Shown in pieces: positions 25,752 through 30,119 of a DNA stretch of 42,943 nucleotides. The position numbers and the translations under genes were made by a program. Under the pieces are notes generated by a model. That model was not told the DNA's origin and did no database searches. It worked only from the letters and a program-made list of their open reading frames with translations. The stretch covers positions 1 to 42,943 of the forward strand of contig UCJH01000074.1 in the NCBI GenBank assembly GCA_900472785.1, read 5' to 3'. Position 1 is the first letter of the stretch. Each line of letters opens with the position of its first letter. The stretch is from Hyphomicrobiales bacterium (lineage in GTDB: Bacteria; Pseudomonadota; Alphaproteobacteria; Rhizobiales; Rhizobiaceae).

Positions 25752-26069
25752 ATGACAACGAGCCAGACCATCGTCCTGATCATCCTCGTGATCAACATCA
25801 TCACCTTCTGCGTCTTCTGGTGGGACAAGGGCGCGGCCCGCGAAGGGCGTTGGCGCGTGCCCGAAAGCCGGTTGCTCGCCCTTGCATTGATCGGCGGCAG
25901 CCTTGGCGCCGTCGCAGGACAGCAACTCCTTCGACATAAAACCCGGAAGGAGCCGTTCCGCAGCAATCTCATGCTGATCGTCGCCGTTCATCTCCTGACC
26001 CTTGTCGCCTGGCTTTCAGCACCTCTCTGGTTTGCATCGGCTCTTGCCGTCACCCGGCAACTGTCGTGA
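25752..26069 (+). CDS. DUF1294 family small membrane protein
   Basis: The 105-residue protein has a first membrane helix ([19 protein letters not shown]), the DUF1294 core signature [30 protein letters not shown], then [14 protein letters not shown], and a last helix ([19 protein letters not shown]). DUF1294 proteins are small inner-membrane proteins of unknown function. It is divergent from gatB and is the first of four plus-strand genes between the two gat blocks. A second ATG is not available without losing the first helix. Confidence 0.87.
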
Positions 26070-26094
26070 TCCGCCTCTATCGCGTTTGTCCATC

Positions 26095-26131
26095 TTGACA
26101 CGCGCCGCCATTCGTAACTATTATTATTACA
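26095..26131 (+). promoter_or_regulatory. Promoter placing the transcript start at the ATG of the Rrf2 gene
   Basis: A perfect TTGACA (26095-26100), a 17-nt spacer and CTATTA (26118-26123) are followed by only 7 nt before the ATG at 26131. Transcription should therefore start at or one base before the start codon, giving a leaderless mRNA; no Shine-Dalgarno sequence is present. An imperfect 17-nt palindrome (26114-26130, GTAA...TTAC) overlaps the -10 and may be an operator. Confidence 0.65.
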
Positions 26132-26583
26132 TGAAAAGAAACAGTCGCCTTTCCGCGGTGCTGCATGCGCTGCTCCACATGGCAGAACGCGGTCGCCCGA
26201 TGACCTCGGACGAACTCGCTGTCTGCCTTGGCACCAATCCCGTCGTTGTTCGGCGCACAATGGCCGGGCTGCGCGAGGCCGGGCTTGTTGCCTCCGGGCG
26301 CGGCCATGGCGGCGGCTGGATGCTGGCCCGCGCGCTCGAAGACGTCACCATGCGCGATATCTATGCCGCGCTTGGCGAACCGATGCTGTTCCAGATGGGA
26401 AATGTCAGCGAAAGCCCGGGCTGCCTGGTCGAGCAGGCCGTCAACCACGCGCTGGACGACGCATTTCGCGATGCCGAAGCCATGCTGATTGCCCGCCTCG
26501 GCGAAGTCACGCTCGCAGCCCTTGCCGACGATTTCAAACGGCGCTTTGCCGAACACCGGGCCGCGCTGAAACCTCACGGCTGA
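26131..26583 (+). CDS. Rrf2-family transcriptional regulator
   Basis: The 150-residue protein has an N-terminal winged helix: NSRLSAVLHALLHMAERG, then MTSDELAVCLGTNPVVVRRTMAGLREAGLVASGRGHGGGWMLAR, the Rrf2 recognition helix and wing. A helical dimerisation region follows. Only two cysteines are present (positions about 30 and 95), not the three-cysteine cluster of IscR or NsrR, so iron-sulfur binding is unlikely and a thiol or ligand sensor is possible. The downstream flavoprotein gene starts 82 bp later on the same strand and is the likely target. The start is set by the promoter position, and the mRNA looks leaderless. Confidence 0.85.
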   Translation: MKRNSRLSAVLHALLHMAERGRPMTSDELAVCLGTNPVVVRRTMAGLREAGLVASGRGHGGGWMLARALEDVTMRDIYAALGEPMLFQMGNVSESPGCLVEQAVNHALDDAFRDAEAMLIARLGEVTLAALADDFKRRFAEHRAALKPHG

Positions 26584-26665
26584 CCGCCGCAACCACCTCT
26601 GATCTTTCGCTACCGGGCTTCCTTGACGTCGCCTCCGGCCGGCGAAGCCATGAAAGGACAAGACC

Positions 26666-27571
26666 ATGCAACAGGACGCAATCATCATCGGCGGCGGTTT
26701 CGCCGGACTGTCGGCCGCCTATATTCTGGCCCGCGCACGCCGCCATGTGACGATCATCGACACGGGCACGCCGCGCAACCGCTTTGCCGCCCGCTCACAC
26801 GGCGTGCTTGGGCATGACGGCAAATCGGGCGGCGAAATCCTGTCCGAGGCGCGCGCCCAACTCCTCGCCTACCCGACCGTCACCTTTATCGACGGCGAGG
26901 TTGACTCCGCGGCAGGTGCGATCGACGATTTTCATGTCAGCATCGACGGGCACGGTACGATCGCCACCCGGAGATTGCTTCTGGCGAGCGGAATAGAAGA
27001 CCGGCTGCCGGATATTCCGGGTCTTCGGGAGCGCTGGGGCAAGACGGTTCTGCATTGCCCCTATTGCCACGGCTACGAGATCGGCGGCGGCCCGATCGGC
27101 GTTCTGGCAACGCACCCGATGTCGGCGCATCAGGCGGCAGTCGTTGCCGACTGGGGCACTGTTACGCTCTTCACCAATGGGATGCCGGAGCCGGACGAGG
27201 CAACGCTTGCCCTTCTCGAAAGGCGCGGCGTCAGCCTCCAGCCGGGCGCGGTCAGCGTCATAGAAACCGGCACCTGCGACATGCAGCGGGTACGGCTGGA
27301 AAACGGTCGAACTTTCGACGTCAAGGCGCTGTTTGTCGCTGCCGACCTGCATATTCGCGGCACGATCGCGGAAAACCTCGGCTGTGCGATGGAAGACTCG
27401 GCGGCCGGCAAGATCCTCACCACCGATGCCATCAAGGCAACCAGCATCCCCGGGGTCTATGCCGCCGGTGATATCGCCCGCGCTTTCGGCAACATCACCC
27501 TCGTATCCGCCGATGGCGTCATGGCAGGGCTCGGAATGCATCAGTCGCTGATGTTTTCAGCCCGTTCCTGA
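26666..27571 (+). CDS. Thioredoxin-reductase-like NAD(P)/FAD-dependent oxidoreductase
   Basis: The 301-residue flavoprotein has an N-terminal FAD-binding Rossmann motif (IIIGGGFAGLSAAYILARA, residues 6-24) and a redox-active Cys131-Pro-Tyr-Cys134 pair in LHCPYCHGYE, as in thioredoxin reductases. The C-terminal FAD motif is GVYAAGDIA. The usual GxGxxA NADPH motif around residue 145 is altered to GVLATHPMSAHQAA, which places it in the divergent TrxB-like group that often lies beside Rrf2 regulators. Its electron acceptor is unknown. An AAGGA box precedes the ATG at 26666. It is probably co-transcribed with and controlled by the Rrf2 protein. Confidence 0.88.
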   Translation: MQQDAIIIGGGFAGLSAAYILARARRHVTIIDTGTPRNRFAARSHGVLGHDGKSGGEILSEARAQLLAYPTVTFIDGEVDSAAGAIDDFHVSIDGHGTIATRRLLLASGIEDRLPDIPGLRERWGKTVLHCPYCHGYEIGGGPIGVLATHPMSAHQAAVVADWGTVTLFTNGMPEPDEATLALLERRGVSLQPGAVSVIETGTCDMQRVRLENGRTFDVKALFVAADLHIRGTIAENLGCAMEDSAAGKILTTDAIKATSIPGVYAAGDIARAFGNITLVSADGVMAGLGMHQSLMFSARS

Positions 27572-27583
27572 CGAAGCGGCATG

Positions 27584-27613
27584 CTTGACGGACGGCACGG
27601 GCCTGCCTTAAAA
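27584..27613 (+). promoter_or_regulatory. Promoter of the yjhX leader transcript
   Basis: CTTGAC (27584-27589) matches the rhizobial -35 consensus exactly. With a 17-nt spacer it precedes CTTAAA (27607-27612). A start near 27619 would put an 8-codon reading frame and three hairpins in the 160-nt leader before yjhX. Confidence 0.55.
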
Positions 27614-27636
27614 GCAGCCGTCCTTGTGGAGTTTTG

Positions 27637-27663
27637 ATGTTCACCTCGTCTGAGATTGCCTGA
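27637..27663 (+). CDS. Eight-codon upstream ORF in the yjhX leader (candidate leader peptide)
   Basis: ATG at 27637 is preceded by GGAG (27628-27631) at ideal spacing and encodes MFTSSEIA before a TGA at 27661-27663. The first hairpin starts one base after the stop. Good initiation signals on so short a frame suggest that its translation, not its product, matters. In E. coli, translation of a leader ORF (toiL) upstream of topAI/yjhX is reported to regulate the gene when antibiotics stall ribosomes. I see no sequence similarity that I can verify, only the same arrangement. Confidence 0.5.
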   Translation: MFTSSEIA

Positions 27664-27664
27664 G

Positions 27665-27764
27665 GGCCCTGCCCGCAAATCCTTTGCGCGCACGGGCCGG
27701 AAAACGAAGCCCTGACGTTCGACAGAACGCCAGACCCGTTTTCATGCGTTCTTTCGAACGCCAT
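27665..27764 (+). promoter_or_regulatory. Structured leader of yjhX with competing hairpins (attenuator-like)
   Basis: Three stem-loops follow the upstream ORF: an extended hairpin at 27665-27698 (outer GGCCC..GGGCC, inner CGCAAA/TTTGCG), one at 27712-27733 (CTG-A-CGTTC/GAACG-C-CAG) and one at 27744-27764 (ATGCGTTC/GAACGCCAT, UUUC loop). The arms CGTTC (27716-27720), GAACGC (27725-27730), GCGTTC (27746-27751) and GAACGC (27756-27761) can pair 1:2 and 3:4 or, alternatively, 2:3. This is the logic of a translation-controlled switch. The yjhX start itself has no strong ribosome-binding site. Confidence 0.5.
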
Positions 27765-27780
27765 TCGGATCTCAACACCC

Positions 27781-28038
27781 ATGGACATTTCACGCGAAGA
27801 ACAGCGTATCCTGCATCTCATGGCCCAGGGCGGCCGCATCGAAATCACGCGAAGCGCAGGCAAGACGATCAGTGACGCCCGTTGCTTCACCCGCGACGGC
27901 TGGGTCTCGCCCGGTTTCAATCTCGACTTGTTTCGCAAGCTGAAGCGGAAGAAGGCCATCGCCTCATCCGGCGGCAAACCGTACCGCATCACCCAGCGCG
28001 GACTGGTTCTCGTGCGCGCGGAACTGAACAACCGCTAA
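27781..28038 (+). CDS. yjhX: YjhX/TopAI family protein, putative topoisomerase I inhibitor
   Basis: The 85-residue protein matches E. coli YjhX along its length: ISREEQRILHLMAQGGRIE at the start, ARCFTRDGWVSPGFNLDLFRKLKRKK in the middle and GKPYRIT...VRAELNNR at the end (the UPF0386 family). E. coli YjhX, renamed TopAI, binds topoisomerase I and inhibits its DNA relaxing activity; its partner YjhQ is a GNAT-fold antitoxin. Inhibition of the local TopA (39783-42494) is inference from the family. A GNAT gene lies directly beyond it but on the opposite strand. The ATG at 27781 matches the family start. The leader suggests translational control. Confidence 0.88.
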   Translation: MDISREEQRILHLMAQGGRIEITRSAGKTISDARCFTRDGWVSPGFNLDLFRKLKRKKAIASSGGKPYRITQRGLVLVRAELNNR

Positions 28039-28047
28039 TCATCAACG

Positions 28048-28080
28048 CGGTCCCGGCATCACACCAGCATGCCGGGACCG
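28048..28080. repeat. Perfect 12-bp inverted repeat between convergent yjhX and GNAT genes
   Basis: CGGTCCCGGCAT (28048-28059) pairs perfectly with ATGCCGGGACCG (28069-28080) across a 9-nt loop. The right arm and loop encode the last codons of the GNAT protein (GPGMLV and stop). No T tract follows on either strand, so it may be a Rho-independent-like stem without a tail, or an mRNA 3'-end protecting hairpin for both transcripts. Confidence 0.7.
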
Positions 28081-28574
28081 TAGCCTGTCAGCTCGTCGAC
28101 CGTGAGCCGTTTCGTCAGGCCCACCGATTCCACATCCCGGTCGAGCTTCGCGGAATAGGTCGTCGACAGCCAGTTGACCGAATAGCCGTGTTTCTTGAAG
28201 AAGCCGATGGCGCGCGCGTTCTGCGCATGTGTCTTCGTCGTGGCAAAATCAAAGCCCGCGCGCACGATCTCCGCCTCCATATGCTCCAGCAGGCGCGAAC
28301 CGATCCCTGCGCCCTGAACACCGGGATCGATCCAGAGATCGGAGATCGCTCCGTCTCGATCCTCGCACGCGGCCCAGCCGACCGGCGTGCCATCGTGCTC
28401 GATGACGCTCGTCGCCGACCAGTGCGTTCTGAGGAACGAAAGAAAAGCCTGCTCGGCAACGCCGCGCATGCGCCCGACATCGGCAAGGCCAAGGACCGCC
28501 TGTTCCCATGCACGCAAACCGACGGCGCTCAAAAACGCCACCTCGGCTTCACGGGCAGTGCGGACAAATATCAT
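28059..28574 (-). CDS. GNAT N-acetyltransferase between gatA and yjhX
   Basis: The 171-residue protein has the GNAT acetyl-CoA fold: WAACEDRDGAISDLWIDPGVQGAGIGSRLLEHME with the Q-x-x-G-x-G loop near residue 90, and KTHAQNARAIGFFKKHGY near 120. The N-terminal FVRTARE motif matches the GNAT protein after gatB. It lies 63 bp downstream of gatA on the same strand. Because E. coli YjhQ, the antitoxin of YjhX, is also a GNAT protein, this could be its functional counterpart, but the convergent orientation differs from the E. coli operon and I cannot confirm orthology. An ordinary acetyltransferase is the simpler view. Confidence 0.82.
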   Translation of the reverse strand: MIFVRTAREAEVAFLSAVGLRAWEQAVLGLADVGRMRGVAEQAFLSFLRTHWSATSVIEHDGTPVGWAACEDRDGAISDLWIDPGVQGAGIGSRLLEHMEAEIVRAGFDFATTKTHAQNARAIGFFKKHGYSVNWLSTTYSAKLDRDVESVGLTKRLTVDELTGYGPGMLV

Positions 28575-28637
28575 GCAGCGGAACCCCTTCCGCTGCAGTT
28601 AAACACCAGAATCACCGCTTGACCAGCGGTGCCGGAA

Positions 28638-30119
28638 CTACCACCACTTGGTAGGCGTGAAGCGGCCGGCCGCCTGCTCGATGACATGAGCCGTCTTGAA
28701 GAGGGTTTCCTCCTCGAAGGGCTTGCCGATCAGCTGAAGACCAAGCGGCAGGCCCTTGTGGTCGAGGCCGGCCGGGACTGAGAGGCCGGGCAGCCCGGCC
28801 ATGTTGACCGTCACCGTGAAGATGTCGTTCAGGTACATCTTGACCGGATCCGATGACAGATCCTCGTCGGCGATACCGAAGGCGGAGGATGGCGTGGCCG
28901 GCGTCAGGATCGCATCGACACCCGCATGGAAGGCCAGTTCGAAATCACGCTTGATCAGCGTGCGCACCTTCTGGGCCTGCAGGTAGTAAGCGTCGTAATA
29001 ACCGGCGGAGAGCACATAGGTGCCGATCATGATGCGGCGCTTGACCTCTGTGCCGAAACCGGCCGCGCGGGTCTTCTCGTACATGTCGGCAATATCCTTG
29101 CCGTCGACGCGCAGGCCGTAACGCACACCGTCATAGCGGGCAAGGTTGGACGAGGCTTCGGCGGGTGCGACGATATAATAGGCCGGCAGCGCATATTTCG
29201 TGTGCGGCAGGCTGATATCGACGATCTCGGCGCCCGCGTCTTTCAGCCAAGCGATGCCCTGTTGCCAAAGCGTTTCGATTTCTTCAGGCATGCCGTCGAC
29301 GCGGTATTCCTTGGGAATGCCGATCTTCATGCCCTTCAGCGACTGACCGAGCGACTTTTCATAATCAGGCACCGGCAGATCGACCGAGGTGGTGTCCTTC
29401 GCATCGACGCTGGCCATCGATTTCAGCAGGATCGCCGCGTCGCGCACGTCGCGGGCGATCGGGCCGGCCTGGTCGAGCGACGAGGCAAAGGCGACGATGC
29501 CCCAGCGCGAGCAGCGGCCATAGGTCGGCTTGATCCCGACGGTGCCGGTAAAGGCTGCCGGCTGGCGGATCGAGCCGCCGGTATCGGTGGCGGTCGCGCC
29601 AGCGCACAGGAACGCCGCAACGGCTGCGGCCGAGCCGCCGGACGAGCCACCCGGAACGAGATCGAGGTTGGACCCATTGGCACGCCAGGGGTTCTTCACC
29701 GGACCGTAATAGGATGACTCGTTCGACGATCCCATGGCGAATTCGTCCATGTTCAACTTGCCGAGCATGACGGCGCCGTCGTTCCAGAGGTTCTGGGTGA
29801 CGGTCGATTCATAACGCGGCAGGAAGCCGTCGAGAATATGGCTGCAGGCCTGCGTATGGATGCCTTCCGTACCGAACAGATCCTTGATGCCAAGCGGAAT
29901 GCCTTCGAGATCGCCGGCCTTGCCGGCCGCAATCCGCTCGTCCGATGCCTTCGCCATCGACAGCGCCTTGTCCGGCGTCACCGTAACATAAGCATTCAGC
30001 GCGCCGTTCGCGGCATCGATCGCTCCGAGATAGGCCTGCGTCAGTTCGACGGCAGTGATCTCCTTGGCGGCGAGCTTGGTGCGGGCTTCGGCGATGGTCA
30101 GGCGTGTCAGGTCGGTCAT
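28638..30119 (-). CDS. gatA: Aspartyl/glutamyl-tRNA(Asn/Gln) amidotransferase subunit A
   Basis: The 493-residue amidase releases ammonia from glutamine for the GatB transamidation step. The amidase-signature Ser-cis-Ser-Lys triad is visible: Lys79 (LGIKDLFG), Ser159 ([10 protein letters not shown]) and nucleophile Ser183 ([10 protein letters not shown]). The conserved [10 protein letters not shown] and ASSLDQAGP segments follow, and the length is normal. It is preceded by gatC with a 61-bp gap and followed by a GNAT gene. The organism therefore makes Gln-tRNA(Gln) and/or Asn-tRNA(Asn) by the indirect route, as is usual in alphaproteobacteria. Confidence 0.97.

What the first reader, a model, noticed from the sequence alone, without database searches (positions are those of the whole stretch)
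27584..27780. yjhX (topAI) has a leader peptide ORF followed by mutually exclusive hairpins
Seen directly: a consensus CTTGAC promoter, an 8-codon ORF (27637-27663) with a good GGAG box, an extended hairpin starting right after its stop, and four arm segments (27716-27720, 27725-27730, 27746-27751, 27756-27761) that pair as 1:2 plus 3:4 or alternatively 2:3. yjhX starts 17 nt later with no strong ribosome-binding site. Known: the E. coli topAI (yjhX) gene is reported to be controlled by a leader ORF whose translation changes under ribosome-targeting antibiotics. Inference: a rhizobial, independently built switch senses ribosome stalling on the leader ORF and controls a topoisomerase I inhibitor. 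I know of no description of this in rhizobia.
Basis: partly seen in the sequence, partly recalled or inferred. Interest (0 to 1): 0.85.

Follow-up and report, generated by a model that had tools for sequence, protein, structure and literature searches.

The report
Leader switch of topoisomerase-inhibitor gene
In front of a gene for a DNA-topoisomerase inhibitor, this rhizobium-like bacterium carries a conserved RNA leader with an eight-codon mini-gene that probably keeps the inhibitor off until ribosomes stall; it is a variant of a switch already known from E. coli.

Summary
Observation confirmed; interpretation partly right. The 8-codon uORF (27637-27663), its SD, TTGACG box and hairpins are real. 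All 22 genus yjhX leaders fetched have the 8-codon uORF. Of 29 leaders under 65% identical, 21 have an 8-codon ATG+SD ORF (shuffle mean 0.4) and 28 encode an in-frame Glu. Cognate uORF:RBS pairing exceeds swapped pairing (0 of 20,000 permutations), though some leaders pair poorly. This is the architecture of E. coli toiL-topAI (PMC12121999). In silico, a ribosome on the uORF eases opening of the yjhX start. Leader type follows the YjhX tree, favouring common descent over independent invention. What differs: another peptide (SE[I/S/T][A/R]* ending against MLENVIIR*), Glu three codons later, no yjhQ found beside the gene, leaderless-like uORFs in 8 Rhizobium-like loci, and terminator-like hairpins in Mesorhizobium-type leaders. 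Expression, stalling and drug response here are inferred, not shown.

The parts
27585..27613 (+). promoter-like TTGACG-N17-TTAAAA
   Evidence: TTGACG 45-60 nt before the uORF in 22 of 22 genus leaders; -10 non-canonical (0 promoters)
27628..27631 (+). GGAG Shine-Dalgarno of the uORF
   Evidence: sequence
27637..27663 (+). 8-codon uORF MFTSSEIA* (toiL-like)
   Evidence: length 8 and in-frame Glu conserved
27637..27643 (+). helix D1, 5' arm: uORF start pairs with 27782-27788
   Evidence: pair probabilities 0.81-0.97; 88.4% of cells paired over 80 leaders but no double changes, so no covariation support (helix 1)
27651..27656 (+). helix D2, 5' arm TGAGAT: pairs with ATCTCA 27769-27774
   Evidence: pair probabilities 0.91-0.99; 72.2% of cells paired, double changes in 4 of 6 pairs (helix 2)
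27665..27698 (+). hairpin A, directly after the uORF stop
   Evidence: 97.5% of cells paired, 12 of 14 pairs with double changes
27700..27743 (+). hairpin B (GAAAACG...CGTTTTC around arms 1 and 2); terminator-like in some relatives, not scored so in the window
   Evidence: 90-97% of cells paired (helices 5-7)
27746..27761 (+). hairpin C (arms 3 and 4)
   Evidence: 96.1% of cells paired, 6 of 6 pairs with double changes
27764..27788 (+). yjhX translation start region, the 3' arms of helices D
27781..28038 (+). yjhX (topAI), YjhX_toxin family PF09857, 85 aa
   Evidence: 119.3 bits against cut-off 27

Best explanation
A toiL-type translational attenuator. Off state: the uORF RNA pairs over most of its length with the yjhX start region (27764-27788), and hairpins A, B and C stack inside; a ribosome that translates the 8 codons quickly opens the helix only briefly, so yjhX is little translated. 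On state: a ribosome stalled or slowed on the uORF (antibiotic or other translation stress) covers the 5' arms of D, frees the weak yjhX start region, and TopA inhibitor is made. Shown here by computation: conservation and in-frame constraint of the uORF, covarying hairpins, cognate uORF:RBS pairing, easier opening of the yjhX start under a ribosome footprint, and association with yjhX only. Inferred: transcript start, translation of the uORF in this organism, stalling, the inducing drugs, and TopA inhibition by this YjhX.
For: uORF: (GAG/GAA 30 times in frame against 2 and 3 in the other frames; 28 of 29 divergent uORFs encode Glu). uORF:RBS pairing: RNAduplex mean -16.7 against -12.8 kcal/mol permuted, 0 of 20,000 permutations; ensemble pairs 13.6 against 8.2 in 29 divergent leaders and 15.5 against 12.8 in 33 rhizobial ones, each 0 of 20,000; window 16.9 against 7.8 for shuffled uORFs, 1 of 60 as high. 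Structure. Release: mean opening energy of the yjhX start falls by 6.2 kcal/mol for a start or a mid-uORF footprint, 4.6 for the last codon and 0.4 for a control footprint in 33 rhizobial leaders; mid-uORF beats control in 33 of 33, and in 25 of 29 divergent leaders. Specificity: the covariance model hits 27 of 101 genomes, each of the 27 at a yjhX start, and none of the 64 genomes without a yjhX match (22 of the 27 leaders had been used to build it); one hit in the own genome. E. coli K-12 leader, read by eye: MLENVIIR*, 139 nt before topAI, same layout; experiments on it in PMC12121999.
Against: No expression data. By the crude duplex measure the window's own pair is weak: -8.7 kcal/mol; 25 of 28 other RBS regions pair better with its uORF and 21 of 28 other uORFs with its RBS. 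D1 shows no double changes; D2 and D3 pair in 72% and 59% of cells over 80 leaders, D2 in 64% outside the genus. Seven of the 29 divergent leaders have 8 or fewer expected uORF:RBS pairs (lowest L050, Mesorhizobium type, 2.8), and in five the cognate value does not exceed one of the swapped means by much or at all (L030, L039, L050, L052, L127). In the window a last-codon footprint lowers the opening energy only from 9.2 to 7.8 (control 8.3). The peptide is not ToiL's.
Confidence: 0.77

Rival explanations
1. Transcription attenuation: hairpin B is an intrinsic terminator before yjhX, and uORF translation sets whether it forms.
For: Hairpin B is followed by a conserved CGTTTT; my pattern finds a terminator-like hairpin somewhere in 22 of 23 Mesorhizobium-type leaders, 40 of 66 other leaders (mostly rhizobial), 9 of 20 Pararhizobium-type and 6 of 20 non-rhizobial ones, without a shuffle control; the tool's own scan agrees for L105.
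Against: In the window the scan scored no terminator on the + strand; its 2 hits are on the - strand. The 6 Pararhizobium hits that were printed (of 9) lie at hairpin A, not B. The A-tract opposite the U-tract is conserved too, and the outermost pair of B changes on both sides (AU 30, GC 28 of 80). It does not explain the cognate uORF:RBS pairing.
Confidence: 0.12
2. One reading: arms 1:2 and 3:4 against 2:3.
For: The arms are complementary in the window and, with at least 5 of 6 pairs, in 20 of 22 genus rows.
Against: Only 25 of 58 other rows keep it; 71.4% of cells paired against 67.8% shuffled, though 0 of 500 shuffles reached that and 41 cells show double changes, which related sequences can give; both local hairpins are better kept.
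Confidence: 0.03
3. The uORF reports ribosome supply or translation efficiency through Rho access, as proposed for a DUF1127 gene of Sinorhizobium meliloti (PMC12218461), rather than through RBS release.
For: In E. coli, Rho-dependent termination inside topAI follows translational repression (PMC12121999), and a tetracycline-relieved uORF attenuator exists in a rhizobium.
Against: That uORF has 29 codons and is proposed to act through C-rich early codons; here length 8, Glu frame and RBS pairing are conserved.
Confidence: 0.07

Closest known systems
toiL uORF of E. coli topAI-yjhQP (Baniulyte and Wade, PMC12121999)
   Same: Regulates a YjhX/TopAI gene; 8-codon uORF with SD, 144 nt upstream here against 139 nt; uORF predicted to pair with the RBS; local hairpins inside the long-range stem.
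   Different: Peptide MFTSSEIA against MLENVIIR; Glu at codon 6, not 3; no yjhQ or yjhP found beside the gene; uORF rich in Ser/Thr/Ala codons, whose absence from toiL the paper offers as the reason for its lack of chloramphenicol response; drug response here untested.
TopAI-YjhQ toxin-antitoxin system (PMC4666372, passages read)
   Same: Same toxin family, PF09857.
   Different: YjhQ not adjacent; the neighbouring GNAT shares only a 20-residue stretch with YjhQ (E 0.004) and is present in 4 of 4 genus genomes without yjhX.
erm-type antibiotic leader peptides (as cited in PMC12121999)
   Same: Ribosome stalling on a uORF frees the start of the next gene.
   Different: Target is a topoisomerase inhibitor, not a resistance gene; no direct comparison was made here.

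Membership tests
toiL-type leader of topAI | downstream gene of the YjhX/TopAI family | tested here: met
   PF09857 E 7e-35
toiL-type leader of topAI | 8-codon uORF about 140 nt upstream, with SD | tested here: met
   8 codons, 144 nt, GGAG
toiL-type leader of topAI | uORF pairs with the RBS of the main gene | tested here: met
   (computed, not probed; the isolated duplex is weak)
toiL-type leader of topAI | ToiL peptide (first seven residues conserved with topAI-yjhQP) | tested here: not met
   MFTSSEIA against MLENVIIR: works like toiL by architecture, not ToiL by sequence
toiL-type leader of topAI | uORF-dependent induction by ribosome-targeting antibiotics | not testable with these tools
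   needs reporter assays
toiL-type leader of topAI | Rho-dependent termination inside the main gene when repressed | not testable with these tools
   needs RNA measurements
TopAI-YjhQ toxin-antitoxin system | YjhQ antitoxin gene beside yjhX | tested here: not met
Intrinsic-terminator attenuator | GC hairpin plus U-tract between uORF and gene | tested here: not met
   none scored on the + strand in the window; present in relatives
Rfam RNA families | match to a curated family | tested here: not met
   0 matches up to E 1 in 26000-29000

The most novel reading that the evidence does not exclude
The ancestral and near-universal partner of YjhX in Pseudomonadota is this uORF switch and not the YjhQ antitoxin: YjhX is a stand-alone, translation-stress-induced brake on topoisomerase I. 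The rhizobial branch re-registered the peptide (Glu at codon 6, Ser/Thr/Ala-rich) and so senses a different drug set, including chloramphenicol, to which E. coli toiL does not respond.
Probability: 0.3. Interest if true: 0.75.

Novelty: new variant of a known kind. Interest (0 to 1): 0.6.

Why it matters
It extends a single E. coli regulatory uORF towards a family-wide rule: in the sampled Pseudomonadota, YjhX mostly comes with an 8-codon sensor, also where no antitoxin was found beside it. That makes two questions testable: why translation stress should turn on an inhibitor of topoisomerase I, and how the uORF sequence sets the drug spectrum. The 76 distinct peptides picked here are a natural series for it.

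Tried and rejected
Rfam search: nothing. Neighbouring GNAT as a YjhQ-like antitoxin: not supported. RNAalifold on the plain MAFFT alignment A2 gave only 20 pairs, with hairpin B not recovered; I replaced it by a covariance-model alignment, which leans to its own structure and contains the 26 leaders it was built from, so the unfitted alignment A3 was counted too. There the number of further pair types did not exceed shuffles (463 of 500 as high). Literature: 9 searches (searches used the gene's names) showed no paper on a yjhX leader in rhizobia; open-licence PMC papers only, no preprints. Supplements could not be opened, so Figure 4-figure supplement 1 of PMC12121999 (how far its authors followed ToiL) and Table S1 of PMC12218461 were not seen. 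A term search inside PMC10219788 found none of topAI, YjhX, toiL, Rhizobi.

Dropped rows: L093 and L123 (under 260 nt upstream), L033 (second piece of a broken yjhX); 8 duplicate upstreams. Of 42 match rows, 30 had loci. The uORF picker favours length 8 and position 142; three uORFs (L024, L108, L061) were assigned by eye; the unbiased count is. Sources L030, L031, L032 and L142 gave no model match at E 0.001.

Full report
WHAT IS THERE. The window is contig C133 of a 5.38 Mb genome. yjhX (27781-28038) matches Pfam YjhX_toxin with 119.3 bits against a cut-off of 27. Upstream lie TTGACG-N17-TTAAAA, a GGAG box, the ORF MFTSSEIA*, and three hairpins: A 27665-27698, B 27700-27743, C 27746-27761.

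IS THE ORF REAL? yjhX was found in 22 of 26 genus genomes, and all 22 have an 8-codon uORF 143-148 nt upstream. I collected 137 YjhX loci with enough upstream DNA, 129 distinct. With a picker that favours 8 codons and three hand assignments, 118 of 137 have exactly 8 codons. The unbiased test: in 29 leaders under 65% identical to one another, 21 hold an ATG+SD ORF of exactly 8 codons at -260 to -90, against a mean of 0.38 and a maximum of 3 in 200 shuffle rounds; among the 29 loci L034-L062 of the phylum sample 19 do (0.365 shuffled); in random pieces of the rhizobial loci 4 of 1216 do. In the 29 divergent uORFs GAG/GAA falls in the reading frame 30 times and in the other frames 2 and 3 times, and 28 of 29 peptides contain Glu. 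In 8 Rhizobium-like loci TTGAC lies 35-36 nt before the uORF ATG and no GGAG-type SD is present (some have a weaker AAGG or GGA), as expected of a leaderless ORF. A uORF that keeps its start by another route is indirect evidence of translation.

IS THE STRUCTURE REAL? The leader folds better than 200 of 200 dinucleotide shuffles, z -3.6. On 80 leaders aligned by a covariance model (84 loci searched, 80 matches at E <= 0.001, including the 26 of the model), 37 of 53 pairs show changes on both sides against 20.7 after shuffling, and 88.5% of cells pair against 80.7%. Helix A is paired in 97.5% of cells, the parts of B in 90-97%, C in 96%. The alignment leans to its structure; in the unfitted MAFFT alignment of 26 leaders the figures are 10 pairs against 5.3, reached by 1 of 500 shuffles, while pair types do not exceed shuffles.

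THE SWITCH. In the window uORF nt 27637-27643 pair with 27782-27788 (probabilities 0.81-0.97), and TGAGAT 27651-27656 with ATCTCA 27769-27774 (0.91-0.99), closing a stem around A, B and C. The minimum-energy fold of a slightly longer piece (27620-27795) instead pairs the uORF SD and start with the same yjhX start region, so the exact register is uncertain. Swapping uORFs between species tests the pairing: cognate pairing is stronger in 29 divergent leaders (13.6 against 8.2 expected pairs) and in 33 rhizobial ones (15.5 against 12.8), reached by 0 of 20,000 permutations each. A ribosome footprint on the uORF start or middle lowers the cost of opening the yjhX start by 6.2 kcal/mol on average in 33 rhizobial leaders, and a control footprint by 0.4; the mid-uORF footprint beats the control in 33 of 33, and in 25 of 29 divergent leaders. 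Against: the window's isolated duplex is weak, D1 has no double changes, D2 is paired in only 64% of cells outside the genus, and 7 of the 29 divergent leaders have 8 or fewer expected pairs.

RELATION TO E. COLI toiL. PMC12121999 (abstract, sections 7, 8, 22, part 1 of section 11 and passages read) shows in E. coli an 8-codon uORF 139 nt upstream of topAI, predicted and SHAPE-supported to pair with the topAI RBS; at least five antibiotic classes relieve repression. I read the K-12 leader by eye: MLENVIIR*, same layout. On a YjhX tree of 41 rows, 19 rows with Glu (or Gln) at about codon 6, rhizobial ones plus the long-branched L031, form one side of a branch with 95/87 support; on the other side 19 of 22 rows, K-12 among them, have Glu at codon 3. 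The label changes 3 times against 13.8 shuffled. My label lumps Glu at codons 5-8 with Gln, and the bootstrap had not fully settled. So the leader seems to descend with the gene, and 'independently built' is the less likely reading.

DEDICATION TO yjhX, WITHOUT yjhQ. The model finds one element in the own genome and 27 in 101 genomes, each at a yjhX start and none in the 64 without a yjhX match; 22 of the 27 had been used to build the model. 10 of the 37 genomes with a yjhX match were not hit, none of them of the genus; the search used strict filters. Similarity to YjhQ near YjhX was seen in 6 of 141 loci besides K-12, at 30-36% identity (flanks 1.5-3 kb); in the own genome its best match lies on another contig. 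The GNAT gene beside yjhX is on the opposite strand downstream in most Pararhizobium loci and upstream in most Rhizobium loci, and exists in 4 of 4 genus genomes without yjhX.

VERDICT. A real, conserved regulatory leader; mechanism most likely toiL-like translational attenuation (0.77). It is a variant of a known kind: same architecture, different peptide and context. The 9 literature searches showed no description of it in rhizobia. Papers seen besides PMC12121999: PMC12218461 (abstract, sections 5 and 6, passages), PMC10117765 (passages), PMC4666372 (passages). Expression, stalling and drug spectrum remain to be measured.

Noticed in passing
L024, L045, L076, L094, L130, L132, L139, L140: Rhizobium-like loci in which TTGAC lies 35-36 nt before the uORF ATG and no GGAG-type SD is present: probably a leaderless uORF; 7 of the 8 have 9 codons.
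   Followed up: partly
L046, L047, L050, L105 and other Mesorhizobium-type loci: Leaders with uORF MSTYAQSR* or near it carry a terminator-like hairpin in 22 of 23 (no shuffle control); L050 pairs poorly with its RBS; by eye hairpin C is missing. Possible change from translational to transcriptional attenuation.
   Followed up: partly
L029 (and L033): yjhX broken by a frameshift after about codon 27 while the leader is intact.
   Followed up: no
window 28059-28574 (-): The GNAT gene lies on the opposite strand to yjhX, downstream (convergent) in most Pararhizobium loci and upstream (divergent) in most Rhizobium loci, near the same gatA: yjhX with its leader may have moved as a unit.
   Followed up: partly
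window 26122-27571: Rrf2-family regulator followed by a thioredoxin-reductase-like flavoprotein, both upstream of the yjhX leader on the same strand.
   Followed up: no
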